Part shown: positions 30,514 through 36,716 of the stretch, in pieces
How positions within the stretch are numbered: the stretch's first letter is position 1
Layout: each line of letters opens with the position of its first letter
Source of the DNA: Pelosinus fermentans JBW45
GTDB taxonomy: Bacteria; Bacillota; Negativicutes; DSM-13327
Direction: 5' to 3'
DNA length: 64,000 nucleotides
Assembly (NCBI RefSeq): GCF_000271665.2
Contig: NZ_CP010978.1
Location: 1,830,501 to 1,894,500 of the forward strand
Translations under genes and position numbers: made by a program
Notes under the pieces: generated by a model
Told to the model about the DNA's origin: nothing
The model's input: only the letters and a program-made list of their open reading frames with translations
The model's database searches: none

Positions 30514-31077
30514 ATGATTAATCTAGATGTAAGCAAGTCGTTTATCGCAAATAACTGGAAATATTTCATGGGGCTAGTCGTTATACTGGCCCTTTTGTTT
30601 TGGGGCCGGCAAGAATACCAGCAGTGGAAGCAGCACATCATTGATCAAGCGCAGAAAGCAAATACTCAAACAGTTGTTACATTGCCGACTCAAGTGATAA
30701 ACACTAGTACAGAAACAATCAGAGAGGTTGCTGTACAAGCTCCAAGCCAGGAGGGGGCTATTCTCCAATTCGTAGAGCGACAAGGTAAGGTAATTGCTAT
30801 AGTAAATGGTCAAGAGATCGAGGTTCCAAACGTATCCGGTCAGCCTGACGTAAAGATAGGCGAGAATGGAGAGCTTAGATTTTCAACGTCATCTACTACT
30901 AAAATAGATGTTACCGACATGGCAAATGCTCAGGCAAGACTGATTGCTAACCAAGAACTAGAAAAACAGGCTAAAATAAATGCTGAGGAAATGAAAAAAG
31001 AAAAATCCTCCCGCAAGAAGGAACGTATTGGATGGATACTTGGGACTGCTGCAGGAGGATATTTACTGACACGTTAG
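30514..31077 (+). CDS. Membrane-anchored coiled-coil protein of the lysis cassette, possible spanin
   Basis: This 187-residue protein has one N-terminal TM helix (about 16-31, WKYFMGLVVILALLFWG), a periplasmic helical/Gln-rich linker, a beta-rich middle (VIAIVNGQEIEVPNV; DVKIGENGELRFSTSS) and a C-terminal coiled coil (ARLIANQELEKQAKINAEEMKKE) before a basic stretch and a short hydrophobic end (IGWILGTAAGGYLLTR). It starts two bases after the amidase stop. In a host with an outer membrane, a third lysis gene fusing the membranes is expected. The layout is reminiscent of i-spanins but no lipoprotein partner was found, so function is uncertain. Confidence 0.5.
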   Translation: MINLDVSKSFIANNWKYFMGLVVILALLFWGRQEYQQWKQHIIDQAQKANTQTVVTLPTQVINTSTETIREVAVQAPSQEGAILQFVERQGKVIAIVNGQEIEVPNVSGQPDVKIGENGELRFSTSSTTKIDVTDMANAQARLIANQELEKQAKINAEEMKKEKSSRKKERIGWILGTAAGGYLLTR

Positions 31078-31083
31078 AATTAC

Positions 31084-31123
31084 AGCCGTCTACCTTATTT
31101 AGGTGGACGGCTCTTGTATTTTT
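31084..31123 (+). terminator. Strong terminator of the phage late operon
   Basis: The 12-bp arms agccgtctacct and aggtggacggct (one T-G mismatch pair) are followed by cttgtattttt. It ends the structural and lysis transcription unit. Confidence 0.85.
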
Positions 31124-31130
31124 AGGCTGC

Positions 31131-31160
31131 TTTACAAAAATGGTATATTTAGGGTATCAT
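31131..31160 (+). promoter_or_regulatory. Probable promoter of the GHKL-nuclease gene
   Basis: TTTACA at 31131-31136 and TATCAT at 31155-31160 have an 18-base spacer, right after the late terminator, and a second -10-like TATAAT lies at 31164-31169. The ATG of the next gene is at 31200. Confidence 0.5.
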
Positions 31161-31199
31161 AAGTATAATTAGTCCACATGGTAATAAGGAGTGTTTCAC

Positions 31200-33167
31200 A
31201 TGTCTTTTCAACTTCCAGTTGTTGTTACTGATGATTTTTTAAATAGAATAAAAGCTTCACCTATTTCTGCACTAAATGAATTATTGTGGAATGGTCTTGA
31301 TGCCGATGCTAGTATTGTAGATATTAGTTATGAAGCTACATCTATGGGAGCAATAGAGCAAGTAATTATAAAAGATAACGGGCATGGTATCGATTTCAGC
31401 ACAGTAAATCAAACATTTGGTTTTTTAGGTGGATCTAAAAAACAACAACAATGTAAAACTCAAACTGGAAGAGCAATGCATGGGAAAAAAGGATCTGGCC
31501 GTTATTTAGCACTATCAATTGGTCGCAACATCACTTGGCAGAGTGTATACAGAAAAGAAGATGGTCAGAATTACCGCTTTGAGATTAATTGTGATGCTGA
31601 TAATCCTAATATTTTTAACATATCAGACGAGAACCCCACGGATGCACATACAGGTGTAGCTGTTGTGATTACTTGCATCCGAGAAAGCGTCTCTAACCAA
31701 TTAAACAATAGAGAAAAACTGCTCTTAGAATTAAATAAAACATTTGCTCCGTATTTACTTACTTTTACTGGAATTAAAATTGTTGTTGATGGACTACAGT
31801 TGCAACCGGAAAAAATGATAGAAGATAATGTAACTATTGGTCTTATGGTTAAAAATGAAAATGACGATCTAATTTCTGGGCAAATAAAGATCATACGATG
31901 GAAAAATAACAACGTAAAAACATTCTACGCTTGCTCGTTAGCTGGCGTTCCTTATGATACAATATCGCTTAATGTAGATACGGGAAGAATGCCAATCACT
32001 GCTTATCTGTGTTCTGAGTATATCGAAAGAATATATGATAACAATTTGATTATGGATACAGGATATGAACTTCTTTGCAATGGAATGAAGGGTAAAATAA
32101 AAGAATATTATCGTAATTGGGTTTCGTGTAATGCAATTCAGACTGTAAATAAACTAAAAGAAGAAGGAACCTATCCTTATAAAGGCGCTCCAAAAACAGA
32201 ATTAGACCTTGCTGAAAGGCAAGTTTTTGATATTTGCTTGGTTAATCTTAATGAAGCAAAGCCAGATATATTTAGTATGCCAAAAGCGGCGAAAAGTTTG
32301 ACAATGGGATTGATTAAAGAAGCTCTCCACCAAAATCCTACTAATCTAAAAAAAGTACTTAAAGAAGTTCTAAATTTATCAGAAAGAGATTTAGGTGACC
32401 TGGTTGACATACTAGAGAAGACAACTTTAAACTCTATTATTAGTACAACTAAAATGATAGGAGATCGTCTAAAATTTTTAAATGGTTTAGAGCAGATGAT
32501 ATACTCTAAGGAATATTCCAAATATGTTAGAGAGCGTAGTCAGTTACACAAAATACTGCTTAATGAACTCTGGATATTTGGGGAACAGTATGCTCTTGGA
32601 GTTAGTGACCAAAAACTTTATAATGCATTAAAAGATTATGCTAAATTTTTAAATCGTGAAGAGCTTGCTATGGATTTATTGCCTGAAGAAGTGCAGTCCA
32701 TGAGTGACATCCCTGATATTTGTTTATGGCAGCAATATTCACTAGGCAGGGCAGATACAGTTGAGAATTTAGTTATTGAGTTAAAGCGACCGTCGGTTGT
32801 TATTAGTGATGTAGAGATTGCTCAAATAAAAAGATATGCATTAACTGTAGCTGATAATCCTAGATTCCCCAAAGAGAAGACCAATTGGACGTTCTTACTA
32901 GTTAGTAGTGATATAGATAAGTTTGCACGTTTTGGTTTACGAGAAATTAATAATATAGCTGGGGTTAGTATAGATGATCAAAATATTCGTGTTATAGTAA
33001 AAGATTGGGGGCAAATAATTAGTGAGGCCCATGCAAGATATAAATTTTTAGAAGAAAAACTCAGTGCTTCCGTTACAAATAATGAGGGCATTAAGTATTT
33101 GCAGGAGAGATATTCTAAATTGTTGCCAAATTGTATGCTTGAGACAGCAAGCGCACTAGAAAAATAG
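31200..33167 (+). CDS. GHKL (HSP90-like) ATPase fused to a Shedu-like PD-(D/E)xK nuclease, candidate anti-phage protein
   Basis: The ATG at 31200 lies eight bases after AAGGAG; a GTG nine bases upstream is inside the SD. The 655-residue protein has a GHKL ATP-binding domain at residues 15-175: N-box E27-LLW-N31, G1 box D59-N-G-H-G63, and a glycine-rich lid at 95-100 (GKKGSG). A helical middle follows. The C-terminal domain has a nuclease core: D506 in IPDICLWQQ, E527-L-K529 in VIELKRP, and a following IAQIKRYA helix with Q, as in Shedu (DUF4263) nucleases. The combination of sensing ATPase and nuclease, flanked by promoter and terminator inside a prophage, fits a phage-defence or exclusion gene. 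Domain calls are from visible motifs; function is inferred. Confidence 0.75.
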   Translation: MSFQLPVVVTDDFLNRIKASPISALNELLWNGLDADASIVDISYEATSMGAIEQVIIKDNGHGIDFSTVNQTFGFLGGSKKQQQCKTQTGRAMHGKKGSGRYLALSIGRNITWQSVYRKEDGQNYRFEINCDADNPNIFNISDENPTDAHTGVAVVITCIRESVSNQLNNREKLLLELNKTFAPYLLTFTGIKIVVDGLQLQPEKMIEDNVTIGLMVKNENDDLISGQIKIIRWKNNNVKTFYACSLAGVPYDTISLNVDTGRMPITAYLCSEYIERIYDNNLIMDTGYELLCNGMKGKIKEYYRNWVSCNAIQTVNKLKEEGTYPYKGAPKTELDLAERQVFDICLVNLNEAKPDIFSMPKAAKSLTMGLIKEALHQNPTNLKKVLKEVLNLSERDLGDLVDILEKTTLNSIISTTKMIGDRLKFLNGLEQMIYSKEYSKYVRERSQLHKILLNELWIFGEQYALGVSDQKLYNALKDYAKFLNREELAMDLLPEEVQSMSDIPDICLWQQYSLGRADTVENLVIELKRPSVVISDVEIAQIKRYALTVADNPRFPKEKTNWTFLLVSSDIDKFARFGLREINNIAGVSIDDQNIRVIVKDWGQIISEAHARYKFLEEKLSASVTNNEGIKYLQERYSKLLPNCMLETASALEK

Positions 33168-33333
33168 TTATATATTTAGCAGTTCCTTACTTATAGTTTT
33201 TTACATAAACAAAATTATTGAAAATAAGCAAAGTCTACTTGTATAAAAAAATAAGAAATACCCTAGGCCTTAATGGATTAGGGATAGCTTCGTTTTAATA
33301 GAGATTAAAATTATCACAATTTTTTATACACAA

Positions 33334-33370
33334 AAAGCCGCCTTACTCTTTGAGTTTGGCGGCTTTTTTT
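33334..33370 (+). terminator. Terminator of the GHKL-nuclease gene
   Basis: The arms aaagccgcc and ggcggcttt enclose a 15-base loop and are followed by ttttttt. The left arm and loop share 19 of 21 positions with 34341-34361. Confidence 0.85.
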
Positions 33371-33421: not shown

Positions 33422-34024
33422 TTGGAAATTAGAGATATAATTGCTGGTTATGCTGCTATTGCATCAACGGTTTCTATTGGATGGAATATATATCTGGAGC
33501 TTATAAAAAAGAGTAATCAAAGAAAAGCATTGGCAGGTTCATTGATTGCTGAATTACTAGCAATTGAAAATATGTATAAATTAGTTGAACTTAAGCCTTG
33601 GGAATATGAAGCATCACCACCTCTGGATATAGTGAAAATTGATTCTAATTATTTTGCTATATTTGATGGTAATACAGACAAAATTGGGGTTTTTAATAAA
33701 GAAGACGCCTTAATAATAGTTGGATCTTATATATTCTGCAAAGCATATGTTGATACATTGAAGGTATTATCAGAACAATGGCAAGAAACTGTTCGCTTTC
33801 GCCGAAGTTTACCATTAATTTTAGATATTAATTATGATGCTAAATGTAGGGTGTTAGATGAACGAAATAAAGAACTTAAGGATCTATATAATTTAGTTTA
33901 TAACCAACAAGCATACTTTTATAATAATATAAATAGTGCCAAAGGTGTTTTAATTAAAAATACTTTAAATAAGGATAGAAAAATTGTTAAAAGAATTGCT
34001 GCAATATTTACCAGTGATTTCTAG
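33422..34024 (+). CDS. Membrane-anchored accessory protein of unknown function, 200 aa
   Basis: The TTG at 33422 lies behind AATGGAGG. The protein begins with an N-terminal hydrophobic helix (IIAGYAAIASTVSIGWNIYLEL), and the rest is a cytoplasmic helical domain (ALAGSLIAELLAIENMYKLVEL; KAYVDTLKVLSEQWQETVRFRRSL). No named domain is visible. The layout resembles many small membrane proteins of phage defence or exclusion loci, but nothing firmer can be said. It is bounded by a terminator upstream and sits between other accessory genes. Confidence 0.6.
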   Translation: MEIRDIIAGYAAIASTVSIGWNIYLELIKKSNQRKALAGSLIAELLAIENMYKLVELKPWEYEASPPLDIVKIDSNYFAIFDGNTDKIGVFNKEDALIIVGSYIFCKAYVDTLKVLSEQWQETVRFRRSLPLILDINYDAKCRVLDERNKELKDLYNLVYNQQAYFYNNINSAKGVLIKNTLNKDRKIVKRIAAIFTSDF

Positions 34025-34088: not shown

Positions 34089-34328
34089 ATGAGTGATTAC
34101 AAGGTATTTATTGAGGTCATAACTAAACATGACATACACGGCAACGTTCGTCCCTTATCAATTAAATGGGAGGATGGCAGAGTTTTTGAAGTGGATCGCC
34201 TTATTGATGTGTGCCAAGCTGCATCATTAAAAGGTGGCGGTGTAGGCATACGCTATACCTGTAAGATCATGGGTAAACAGGTCTATTTATTTGATGATAT
34301 GGGAAAATGGTTCATGGAAAGAAAATGA
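34089..34328 (+). CDS. Small conserved protein of unknown function, 79 aa
   Basis: This compact beta-rich protein (DYKVFIEVITKHDIHGNVRPLSIKWEDGRVFEVDRL, then GVGIRYTCKIMGKQVYLFDD, ending GKWFMERK) belongs to a short protein type I have seen repeatedly in Clostridia and Negativicutes, often beside DNA-repair or mobile genes. I know no experimental function. The ATG lies behind AGAGGTGAGAAT. It has its own short unit between two accessory genes, so it is probably part of the prophage cargo. Confidence 0.6.
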   Translation: MSDYKVFIEVITKHDIHGNVRPLSIKWEDGRVFEVDRLIDVCQAASLKGGGVGIRYTCKIMGKQVYLFDDMGKWFMERK

Positions 34329-34361: not shown

Positions 34362-34392
34362 ATAATATATGTTAAATTGTCGGGAGGTACCT

Positions 34393-35370
34393 ATGGGAGA
34401 AAAAAATAATGAACGACAAAAACAACATTTTGTTCCAAAAGGATACTTGAATAATTTTTCAATTTCAAGGAAAGGAACCTTGTGGCAGTACGATAAGAAA
34501 GAACAGAAATTATCACCTAAGAAGCCTGTTAGTTCTAAGAGCGTTTGCCAGCATGAGTATTATTATTATCAACACGATGAAGAAGGGAATATTGATCATA
34601 TAACCATTGAGAAAGAAACAGAAAAAGTCGATACAAAAGGGCTTAATATTATTAATCGAATGTTGTCAGTTCCGCAAAATCAATCAATAGAAATTACAGC
34701 AGAACGACAAGATATTTTAGCCTTCTTTCTGGCATTCCTACTAACTCGTAATCCATGTGTTAGAGATGGAATCAACCAGTCTTACGGAACTGCAGCTGAA
34801 ATACTTTCTAAAATATTACAGGATCAAGGTAAGTATCCCCCCTTACCTGAAGGTCTTAGTCCTGATATTATGGAAAAAATTCGATTAGAGATATTTGCTG
34901 AAGTAAGTTTGCGTCCTATGGTTATTATGGCGGAGCAGATTGCTTTATCAATGATGAAAAAATGCTGGTTTCTTTTGCGCGCGCAAGCTAATTCCTATTA
35001 CGTAACGTCGGATAATCCGGTTTCATTTGATTTCCCATACTCATCGTATGGAATGAATATGGGGCCGTCGCACCCCTTAAGCGAAATTTCTATTCCTCTT
35101 GGAGAAAGATTGGCTATAATTATTACTCCTTTTCCGAAGCAAGGGTTTTCTTGTAAAATTTCTACATTGGTTGCATCTCGTGAATTAAATCAATTGATTA
35201 ATTGGCGAACCATACGATCTGCAGCAAGATATGTATACTCTCCGTATCAATCCAATCAATTATTATCCTCTATAAAAAAAGCACATGGAATGGGACAGAA
35301 AGTTGTTTGTAATTTACCAGAGACAAGACGCATTAAAATTCTTGACCATCCATATTTAAATTTAAAATAG
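34393..35370 (+). CDS. DUF4238-domain protein
   Basis: The ATG at 34393 has CGGGAGG at correct spacing; another ATG at 34369 lacks one. The 325-residue protein opens with the DUF4238 signature RQKQHFVPKGYLNNFSI and continues with LWQYDKKEQKL and SVCQHEYYYY, then a helical section (ERQDILAFFLAFLLTRNPCVRDG) and a C-terminal YYVTSDNPVSFDF region. DUF4238 genes are frequent in prophages, islands and defence clusters; their biochemical activity is not established. It is convergent with Ku. Confidence 0.8.
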   Translation: MGEKNNERQKQHFVPKGYLNNFSISRKGTLWQYDKKEQKLSPKKPVSSKSVCQHEYYYYQHDEEGNIDHITIEKETEKVDTKGLNIINRMLSVPQNQSIEITAERQDILAFFLAFLLTRNPCVRDGINQSYGTAAEILSKILQDQGKYPPLPEGLSPDIMEKIRLEIFAEVSLRPMVIMAEQIALSMMKKCWFLLRAQANSYYVTSDNPVSFDFPYSSYGMNMGPSHPLSEISIPLGERLAIIITPFPKQGFSCKISTLVASRELNQLINWRTIRSAARYVYSPYQSNQLLSSIKKAHGMGQKVVCNLPETRRIKILDHPYLNLK

Positions 35371-35538: not shown

Positions 35539-36357
35539 TTATGCTGACTTTGATTTTGGTTTTCTAGTAGATTTCTTCTTGGCTTCGGTTTTCTTTATGG
35601 CTGCCATGCTTGCCTCTAGTGCTGACATAAGGTCTGCAAAATATGGTGAAGTGTCAACAGGTGTTGAAACAGTCATTTCGTTTCCGGCCTTAGTTTCGAT
35701 CATTGCCATTACCTGCTTGTGATATTCGTTTTGATATTTAGAGGGATCGAAGCTCGTTATTAATGAATCTATAAGTGTTTTAGCCATATTAAGCTCTTTT
35801 TCAGATAGATCAACATTAGAAGGTAAATCGTTTTCAAGTTCCTTGGCAGAAACAATTTCATCTGCGAAAAGCATTGTCGATAGAGTAATAATATTATCTG
35901 CCGGGCGTATAGCTGCTAAATATTCTTTATTGCGTAGTACAAATTTAGCTATACCTACTACATTCGCTTCCGTCATACCTTGTAATAATAGAGCGTAGGC
36001 TTTTCCTGCTCCCTGGTCGGGTACAAGGTAGTAAGAGCTATCATAATAACGGTTGTCGATTTCATCTAATTTCACAAAATCTGATATCTCGATTTGCCTA
36101 CTTGCTTTAGGAGCTATTGATTCTAAATCTGTGTCAGAAATAACTACATACCTATCTTCGGATAATTTATAACCCTTAACGATCTCGCTTGCTGGAACTT
36201 CTGCGCCATCCCCAGCAACCCTTTTATATTGTATTCTGCTAAAGTCACTTTTCCGTAGCTGGTTAAAACTAATAGTTTTGGAGCGGGTAGCCTTGTAAAG
36301 AGTCACAGGTACATTGACAAGACCAAAAGACAGCATACCTTTCCATACTGGACGCAT
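35539..36357 (-). CDS. ku: Ku protein (NHEJ DNA end-binding)
   Basis: This 272-residue protein is a bacterial Ku homodimer subunit: the N-terminal core MRPVWKGMLSFGLVNVPVTLYKAT, ISFNQLRKSDFSRIQYKRV, a central bridge region (YYLVPDQGAGKAYALLLQGM; AIRPADNIITLSTMLF) and a Lys-rich C-terminal tail (KKTEAKKKSTRKPKSKSA). Ku encircles DNA ends and recruits LigD; no ligase is in the window. It is the last gene before attR and transcribed opposite to the late genes. Some phages use Ku to circularise or repair their genomes. The domain is certain; phage use is inferred. Confidence 0.92.
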   Translation of the reverse strand: MRPVWKGMLSFGLVNVPVTLYKATRSKTISFNQLRKSDFSRIQYKRVAGDGAEVPASEIVKGYKLSEDRYVVISDTDLESIAPKASRQIEISDFVKLDEIDNRYYDSSYYLVPDQGAGKAYALLLQGMTEANVVGIAKFVLRNKEYLAAIRPADNIITLSTMLFADEIVSAKELENDLPSNVDLSEKELNMAKTLIDSLITSFDPSKYQNEYHKQVMAMIETKAGNEMTVSTPVDTSPYFADLMSALEASMAAIKKTEAKKKSTRKPKSKSA

Positions 36358-36671: not shown

Positions 36672-36716
36672 CTTCTAAGCCGTGGGTCGCACGTTCGAAT
36701 CGTGCCAGGCACACCA
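36672..36716 (+). other. attR: 3' part of a tRNA-Arg(UCU) gene
   Basis: From CTTCTAA (anticodon loop, anticodon TCT) through a perfect T arm (gcacg, TTCGAAT, cgtgc) to the encoded CCA, this is the 3' half of tRNA-Arg(UCU). The sequence before the loop cannot pair with gccgt, so the 5' half is missing. Integration of a phage into the gene leaves such a fragment at the far end. The intact gene is presumably at attL, outside the window on the left. Confidence 0.8.

What the first reader, a model, noticed from the sequence alone, without database searches (positions are those of the whole stretch)
31131..33370. GHKL ATPase fused to a Shedu-like nuclease in the prophage accessory region
One protein combines HSP90/MORC-type ATP-binding motifs (E27/N31, D59-G63, glycine lid) with a C-terminal D...ExK...Q nuclease core. 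Single-gene defences such as Shedu (DUF4263 nuclease) and Tiamat (HSP90-like ATPase) use one of these parts each. A fusion carried with its own promoter and terminator at the end of a phage late operon would be a candidate for inter-phage competition. I cannot tell whether this exact architecture has been described.
Basis: partly seen in the sequence, partly recalled or inferred. Interest (0 to 1): 0.7.

Follow-up and report, generated by a model that had tools for sequence, protein, structure and literature searches.

The report
Probable prophage defence gene, ATPase–nuclease fusion
A prophage carries, in a slot where related prophages carry other genes, a single protein that joins an ATP-driven clamp to a DNA-cutting domain; it is most likely a one-gene defence against other phages, and this general design was already known.

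Summary
Window 31200-33167 encodes 655 aa: a GHKL ATPase plus S5-like domain (residues 8-311, MORC-like, Z about 20), a helical middle part and a C-terminal PD-(D/E)xK nuclease (E445, D506, E527xK529, Q542). These residues are invariant in 38 of 38 non-redundant close relatives (E27 in 37). The gene is an isolated unit in a 54-kb prophage in a tRNA-Arg gene. It fills a slot that holds other ORFs in related prophages; the next slot holds a DUF4238 gene, a domain with published anti-T7 activity. A relative (31% identical) occurs in 11 of 5426 E. coli genomes, in all 11 between psu and int of a P4-like satellite, a published defence hotspot. Anti-phage defence is the likely role.

The architecture is not new: it matches paraMORC3 (2008) and resembles VcSduA, shown in 2025 to stop phages through both its ATPase and nuclease residues. 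"Shedu-like" is only partly right: 0 of 16 members match the Shedu SduA_C model, and NucS/EndoMS and FokI-type enzymes are as close in fold. The group lies apart from a set containing BbrUII/HgiDII restriction enzymes. No activity was tested; VcSduA's sequence could not be compared.

The parts
31084..31112 (+). rho-independent terminator that closes the phage late operon upstream of the gene
   Evidence: scan; fold -21.8 kcal/mol, z -8.1
31131..31160 (+). promoter-like site TTTACA-18-TATCAT (weak evidence)
   Evidence: 10 of 12 matches; 28 sites in the region against 22.0 sd 4.1 in shuffles
31186..31191 (+). ribosome-binding site AAGGAG, 8 nt before the ATG
   Evidence: sequence read
31200..33167 (+). 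GHKL ATPase + PD-(D/E)xK nuclease protein, 655 aa, paraMORC3-type; PHROG 6203 over nearly its full length
   Evidence: (E 8.4e-65)
31221..32132 (+). residues 8-311: GHKL (Bergerat) ATPase + S5-like domain; E27, N31, D59-G63, lid H94-R101
   Evidence: VIA-align Z 20.2 to MORC3, 19.3 to MORC2, 16.3 to MutL; profile hits to MutL, Topo VI-B and MORC2
32058..32519 (+). residues 287-440: helical middle region
   Evidence: secondary structure of the AlphaFold2 model
32487..33077 (+). residues 430-626: PD-(D/E)xK nuclease domain, E445 - D506 - E527xK529 - Q542/Y546
   Evidence: model of this part alone and structure comparison; invariance
33332..33368 (+). rho-independent terminator of the gene
   Evidence: -22.6 kcal/mol, z -7.5
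33422..34024 (+). second cargo ORF in the same slot, 200 aa, unknown, separated by the terminator
   Evidence: no Pfam, PADLOC or NCBIfam match at E <= 1; only weak PHROG matches, best E 0.029
34089..34328 (+). 79-aa gene conserved in related prophages; right border of the cargo slot
   Evidence: 76-97% identical in 8 of the 12 stretches taken from genus relatives
34369..35370 (+). DUF4238 protein, possible second defence gene
   Evidence: Pfam E 3.2e-33; no PADLOC match; anti-T7 activity of a DUF4238 protein in PMC9122126
36684..36716 (+). attR: 33-bp exact copy of the 3' end of tRNA-Arg(tct); its partner lies 17.4 kb left of the window

Best explanation
The gene is prophage cargo that gives the lysogen a one-protein defence against other phages. 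The protein is of the paraMORC3 type: a GHKL+S5 module that, as in MORC and MutL, would bind ATP, dimerise and close around DNA, joined through a helical middle region to a PD-(D/E)xK nuclease. The likely mechanism is that engagement of a feature of invading or replicating phage DNA drives the ATP-dependent dimer, which positions or releases the nuclease to cut that DNA. Shown here: both domains and intact active sites, sequence conservation over the whole length, terminators that isolate the gene, prophage residence, a variable cargo slot, and the P4-satellite hotspot position of a relative. Inferred: anti-phage function, DNA as target, ATP gating, and direct restriction in preference to cell suicide.
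For: Domains and active sites. Prophage: integrase next to attL, repressor-like and anti-repressor genes, terminase, portal, capsid and tail genes, att repeat in tRNA-Arg. Variable slot: in the 5 stretches from genus relatives (4 distinct) that show both the spanin-like gene and the 79-aa gene, other ORFs lie between (241, 232 + two transposase-like by eye, 189, 356 aa); the window gene was not found in any of the 12 stretches nor in 59 relatives at E <= 1e-25. Hotspot: 11 of 5426 E. coli genomes carry a gene 98% identical in DNA to the Salmonella plasmid copy L036 (31% identical in protein to the window's), and in 11 of 11 it lies between psu and int of a P4-like satellite, the site described as a reservoir of antiviral systems in PMC9122126. 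Mobile elsewhere: 47 plasmid records, 2 Pasteurella phage genomes, 67 loci in viral contigs including distant ones. Among 9 annotated plasmid neighbourhoods seen (L035-L042, L157): Drt2 and R-M (L035), a type ISP R-M enzyme (L037), an abortive infection family protein (L040), DEAD/DEAH helicases (L039, L040, L157), toxin-antitoxin genes (L037, L040, L041, L042). Published analogue: VcSduA E27A and K557A both lose protection, while MOI kinetics suggest direct restriction.
Against: No activity was measured for any member of this branch. The P4 position is shown for a relative at 31% identity, and its 11 copies are 99.9-100% identical over the 4.2-kb segment, so they may be a single acquisition. 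Some relatives lie in neighbourhoods without an obvious defence gene: L036 beside type I secretion genes, L038 among conjugation genes, the two Pasteurella phages among tail genes. PADLOC-DB recognises only the ATPase part, as 'REase_II'. The isolated nuclease has no Foldseek match at E <= 0.001.
Confidence: 0.7

Rival explanations
1. Abortive infection: the GHKL module senses infection and unleashes the nuclease on host nucleic acid, so that the infected cell dies before phage release.
For: The same parts list would serve. WonAB, an ATPase + PD-(D/E)xK pair in a V. cholerae prophage, acts by abortive infection (PMC12137116 passages).
Against: The closest published architecture, VcSduA, protected at all tested MOIs, read by its authors as direct restriction. 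WonA is an ABC ATPase, not GHKL.
Confidence: 0.15
2. A solitary type II-like restriction enzyme of the BbrUII/HgiDII kind that depends on a methyltransferase encoded elsewhere.
For: Full-length homology to a set (A6) that contains BbrUII-type enzymes (hhalign probability 100%, E 1.1e-39); 2 of the 7 proteins of set C pass the NCBIfam BbrUII cut-off.
Against: The window protein scores 58 bits against a cut-off of 550, and set C is split from it with 100/99 support. phmmer with two C5-cytosine methyltransferases found no ORF in the window; it found one in 7 of 55 group A loci (flanks mostly up to 6 kb; the 55 include near-duplicates and 3 short copies of the window's own locus) against 4 of 7 set C loci, five of which have only about 1.4 kb flanks.
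Confidence: 0.1
3. A MutL/EndoMS-like repair or recombination enzyme that serves the phage's own DNA, perhaps together with the prophage Ku.
For: MutL is the best sequence match of the ATPase part, NucS/EndoMS is the top structural match of the nuclease (Z 10.1/9.8), and a Ku gene lies inside the same prophage. Iyer et al. also raised a repair role for members outside R-M contexts.
Against: The NucS match is within about 1-2 Z units of Shedu, BspD6I and FokI. The gene was not found in the 7 stretches of relatives that keep Ku. No Ku was annotated beside the relatives in the two E. coli satellites inspected.
Confidence: 0.05

Closest known systems
paraMORC3 family (Iyer, Abhiman & Aravind 2008, PMC2292703; parts 1-3 of 4 of the text read)
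   Same: N-terminal GHKL + S5, C-terminal restriction-endonuclease-fold domain with E-D-ExK, lateral mobility, a subset as stand-alone genes.
   Different: The paper reports stand-alone members mainly in Proteobacteria and Bacteroidetes and left their function open. I could not see its alignment, so membership rests on its written criteria.
VcSduA, Shedu type I-D (PMC12137116; passages read)
   Same: GHKL ATPase + PD-(D/E)xK in one gene, catalytic glutamate at residue 27, carried on a genomic island.
   Different: Described as carrying DUF4263. Catalytic E-to-K spacing 530 against 502 here (500-519 in 38 close relatives). No direct sequence comparison was possible.
Shedu SduA (PDB 8ps4, 8ps5, 8ti8, 8ti9)
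   Same: PD-(D/E)xK core of the same fold: Z 8.8 over 132 residues (8ti9), 8.2 over 151 (8ps4), 7.9 (8ps5), 7.2 (8ti8).
   Different: No SduA_C match; GHKL+S5 module in place of the Shedu N-terminal domain; other endonucleases score as high or higher.
BbrUII/HgiDII restriction enzymes (NCBIfam NF050001)
   Same: Homologous over the full length at profile level.
   Different: 58 bits against a cut-off of 550; separate branch; no adjacent cytosine methyltransferase found.
PHROG 6203
   Same: Match over residues 23-635, E 8.4e-65.
   Different: A sequence cluster without an assigned function; it scores BbrUII-type proteins still higher (L003, E 2e-160).

Membership tests
paraMORC3 (Iyer et al. 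2008) | GHKL domain with conserved ATP-binding motifs followed by an S5 domain | tested here: met
   Pfam HATPase_c_3 4.9e-15; residues 8-311 align with the MORC3 ATPase-CW structure, Z 20.2, 279 residues, 3.8 A; motif residues invariant
paraMORC3 (Iyer et al. 2008) | C-terminal restriction-endonuclease fold with E-D-ExK | tested here: met
   E445, D506, E527, K529 in 38 of 38 close relatives; fold of the isolated domain. That E445 is the E of that motif is my assignment
paraMORC3 (Iyer et al. 2008) | stand-alone subset without conserved neighbours | tested here: met
   Of 41 non-redundant loci, 32 have at least 1.5 kb on both sides; 3 of 32 have a same-strand ORF within 30 bp upstream and 3 of 32 downstream (simple ORF calling)
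paraMORC3 (Iyer et al. 2008) | grouping with the authors' own sequences | not testable with these tools
   Their alignment and tree are not held; species names in the figure legend only
Shedu | match to SduA_C/DUF4263 (PF14082) | tested here: not met
   0 of 16 members of A1 at E <= 1; two true Shedu proteins score 1.9e-36 and 1.8e-35
Shedu | nuclease core closer to Shedu than to other PD-(D/E)xK enzymes | tested here: inconclusive
   Z 7.2-8.8 against 8.4-10.1 for NucS, BspD6I and FokI; hhalign probability 24%, E 8e-4
VcSduA (Shedu type I-D) | sequence homology to VcSduA | not testable with these tools
   Sequence not held; only residue numbers E27 and K557 known from the paper, a spacing outside that of group A
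BbrUII/HgiDII restriction enzymes | score above the NF050001 cut-off (550 bits) | tested here: not met
   58 bits; positive controls L003 and L083 score 760 and 787
BbrUII/HgiDII restriction enzymes | adjacent C5-cytosine methyltransferase | tested here: not met
   none found in the window by phmmer with two methyltransferases; 4 of 7 set C loci have one
   PADLOC gave only REase_II matches; whether a Tiamat model is in that library was not checked

The most novel reading that the evidence does not exclude
The branch that holds this protein (groups A and B here) is a defence family of its own, distinct from Shedu and from the BbrUII restriction enzymes: a bacterial MORC-like clamp that topologically traps foreign DNA and cuts it with a built-in nuclease, spread by prophages, P4 satellites and plasmids and at present usually annotated only as 'ATP-binding protein' or 'hypothetical protein'.
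Probability: 0.25. Interest if true: 0.65.

Novelty: new member of a known kind. Interest (0 to 1): 0.42.

Why it matters
It ties a widespread single-gene family, for which I found no name beyond the 2008 class, to two sites where phages and satellites store cargo or defence genes, and points to a relative in E. coli P4-like satellites that can be tested at once in laboratory strains. It would also give a bacterial, nuclease-bearing counterpart in which to ask what MORC-type ATPases recognise on foreign DNA.

Tried and rejected
Considered and rejected: (1) chance motifs: excluded by family conservation over the full length. (2) Start at GTG 31191: possible, but the Shine-Dalgarno spacing favours ATG 31200. 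(3) Membership in Shedu proper: the sequence signature is missing. (4) Membership in BbrUII: far below the cut-off. (5) Operon with the 200-aa ORF at 33422: a strong terminator lies between.

Led nowhere or was discarded: the PHROG 6203 survey of 398 genomes 'rang' in 384 and in 14 of 14 control genomes, most likely because its ATPase part catches MutL and HSP90 (inferred), so that tally was not used. Only the 12 matches with E below 1e-45 were sorted: group A 4 including the window's own (others L007, L010, L012), group B 2 (L006, L009), BbrUII-like 4 (L003, L004, L005, L008), not placed 2 (L013, L014); a two-piece match in G303 (L016, E 1e-20) was left out of that count and later put in set C. 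In one search my text pattern for methyltransferases missed the annotated dcm of L035, so its count (0 of 32) was discarded and redone by phmmer. There, set B was cut by score and its 27 loci include two group A fragments (L071, L077); 1 of 27 had a hit. The spacing scripts failed through a wrong pattern; one search replaced them. The full-length structure search was filled by the ATPase part, so the nuclease was modelled alone. In the tree, B_L082 sits inside group A on a very long branch (4.11), so group A is strictly not one clade there. Alignment A1 holds one protein twice (L001, L043). The Shedu alignment A4 holds 8 sequences; L087, L089, L121 and L122 were left out. L156 carried no annotation.

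Literature: ten searches. None of the listings named this branch. PMC13092281 (DefensePredictor, 2026; passages only) reports 13 validated systems with PD-(D/E)XK domains; I could not see whether one of them is this family. Of the other papers cited, PMC2292703 was read in parts 1-3 of 4; PMC12137116, PMC9122126, PMC8011034, PMC12409362, PMC12409358, PMC12904381 and PMC12629846 in passages. The two Shedu papers (Gu 2025, Loeff 2025) are not held; I know of them only through papers that cite them.

Full report
WHAT IS THERE. Window 31200-33167 (+) encodes 655 aa, from an ATG with AAGGAG 8 nt upstream. Two strong intrinsic terminators bound it: one closes the preceding phage operon (31084-31112), the other is its own (33332-33368). 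A promoter-like site lies at 31131-31160, but such sites are nearly as frequent in shuffled sequence. G+C falls from about 43% over the amidase and spanin-like genes to about 33% here.

DOMAINS. Pfam finds HATPase_c_3 (E 4.9e-15) and, below its cut-off, HSDR_N_2 at residues 497-549. A 16-member profile hits MutL (4.4e-9), Topo VI subunit B (3.5e-7) and MORC2 (2.7e-6) chains in the PDB. The AlphaFold2 model (pLDDT 82.7, pTM 0.61, 29-row alignment) aligns over residues 8-311 with MORC3 (Z 20.2, 279 residues, 3.8 A), MORC2 (19.3), TRAP1 (18.5) and MutL (16.3). Residues 430-655 modelled alone (pLDDT 82.5) align with NucS/EndoMS (Z 10.1 and 9.8), the B. cereus Shedu nuclease domain (8.8, 132 residues), Nt.BspD6I (8.7), FokI (8.4) and E. 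coli SduA (8.2, 151 residues; 7.9 with DNA), and B. cereus full Shedu (7.2). Foldseek itself has no match at E <= 0.001 (best 1.1e-3, EndoMS), and the aligner's note says that 7-8 is a usual best Z for models without a clear match. Together with the invariant E445, D506, E527xK529, Q542 and Y546 (38 of 38 relatives under 80% identical to each other) I take the PD-(D/E)xK assignment as solid. A special tie to Shedu is not shown.

FAMILY. Relatives occur in 47 plasmid records (35 with at least 80% coverage), two Pasteurella phages, and 41 then 67 loci of viral contigs, the latter including distant ones. Three sets emerged: A (with the window protein), B (mostly 22-25% identical to it), and C, which contains BbrUII-type restriction enzymes. 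Profile comparisons over nearly the full length give A-B E 3.8e-79 and A against A6 (set C plus L013 and L014) E 1.1e-39. In a maximum-likelihood tree of 57 rows, C is split from A+B with 100/99 support; one long-branched B row (L082) falls inside A, so A is strictly not a clade. In set C, K529 is kept in 6 of 7 and Q542 in 4 of 7. C5-cytosine methyltransferase-like ORFs were found in 7 of 55 A loci, 1 of 27 B loci and 4 of 7 C loci (flanks differ, A includes near-duplicates and 3 copies of the window's own locus, B includes two A fragments). Group A genes mostly stand alone: of 32 non-redundant loci with at least 1.5 kb on both sides, 3 have a same-strand ORF within 30 bp upstream and 3 downstream. 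One of these (L037) overlaps a type ISP restriction enzyme gene by 4 bp.

PROPHAGE AND CARGO SLOT. The window lies in a prophage of about 54 kb between exact 33-bp repeats at the genome's 1813133 and 1867184 (window 36684-36716). The left repeat is the 3' end of tRNA-Arg(tct), with an integrase beside it and a repressor-like and an anti-repressor gene after it. Terminase, portal, major head and tail proteins are in the window. None of 59 other genomes in the relatives' set has the gene at E <= 1e-25. I took 12 stretches around lysis-gene or Ku matches from genus relatives, chosen from the matches. Five (4 distinct; L140 and L141 are near-copies) show both the spanin-like gene (window 30514-31077) and the 79-aa gene (34089-34328), and each has other ORFs between; a decayed second prophage in the same genome (L149) also has both, 16 kb apart. 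The window gene and DUF4238 were found in none of them by tblastn. Ku follows the 79-aa gene with no ORF of 60 aa or more between in 6 of 7 relatives' stretches that hold both; in the seventh a radical-SAM ORF intervenes, and in the window a DUF4238 gene. A DUF4238 protein from a P2-like phage hotspot gave strong resistance to T7 (PMC9122126, passage).

HOTSPOT IN E. COLI. The copy on a Salmonella plasmid (L036, 31% identical to the window protein) has homologues 98% identical in DNA in 11 of 5426 complete E. coli genomes (more distant ones were not sought there). In 11 of 11 the gene lies between psu and int of a P4-like satellite (two inspected with annotation). In 395 further genomes a smaller part of that segment matches; the four of these that were listed show psu and an integrase with other genes between. 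That interval is the defence hotspot described in PMC9122126 (passages). The 11 copies are 99.9-100% identical and count as one or few acquisitions.

FUNCTION. The parts, the isolation, the mobility and the two cargo sites point to anti-phage defence. The closest tested protein by architecture is VcSduA: E27A and K557A abolish protection, and protection was robust at all tested MOIs (PMC12137116, passages). For the window protein I infer ATP-dependent dimerisation on DNA, by analogy with MORC and MutL, that controls the nuclease. None of this was tested here.

KNOWN OR NEW. The architecture was described as paraMORC3 in 2008, with stand-alone genes noted and their function left open (PMC2292703, parts 1-3 of 4 read). 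The window protein meets that paper's written criteria. It does not meet the Shedu sequence signature (0 of 16 members match SduA_C) nor the BbrUII cut-off (58 of 550 bits). I therefore file it as a new member of a known kind. Ten literature searches did not turn up a name for this branch, but supplementary tables were not readable.

Noticed in passing
window 35539-36357 (-): A Ku gene lies inside the prophage, near attR, and is found after the 79-aa gene in 7 stretches from genus relatives (63-87% identical); of unknown use to the phage.
   Followed up: partly
window 34369-35370 (+): DUF4238 gene between the 79-aa gene and Ku, not found at that place in the relatives looked at; a DUF4238 protein has published anti-T7 activity.
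   Followed up: partly
window 33422-34024 (+): 200-aa ORF with, by eye, a hydrophobic N-terminal segment and no Pfam match; a 241-aa ORF in the same slot of a relative (L140:1284-2009) also begins with a hydrophobic segment.
   Followed up: no
L154:12001-13986, L155:10001-11986: Relative in the psu-int hotspot of P4-like satellites in 11 of 5426 E. coli genomes, annotated only as ATP-binding protein.
   Followed up: yes
L149:7854-8795 (G000:C1 near 2495650): In a second prophage-like region of the same genome, disrupted by transposase-like ORFs (by eye), a 313-aa ORF with a sub-threshold SduA_C match (E 2.9e-4).
   Followed up: partly
L037:1055-7965: In a Phaeobacter plasmid the homologue overlaps a type ISP restriction enzyme gene by 4 bp, which suggests a coupled operon there.
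   Followed up: no
L013:760-2790, L014:590-2521: GHKL proteins with no nuclease match in Pfam in their C-terminal parts; L013 has a very weak TIR match (E 0.19), reminiscent of paraMORC4 as described in PMC2292703.
   Followed up: no
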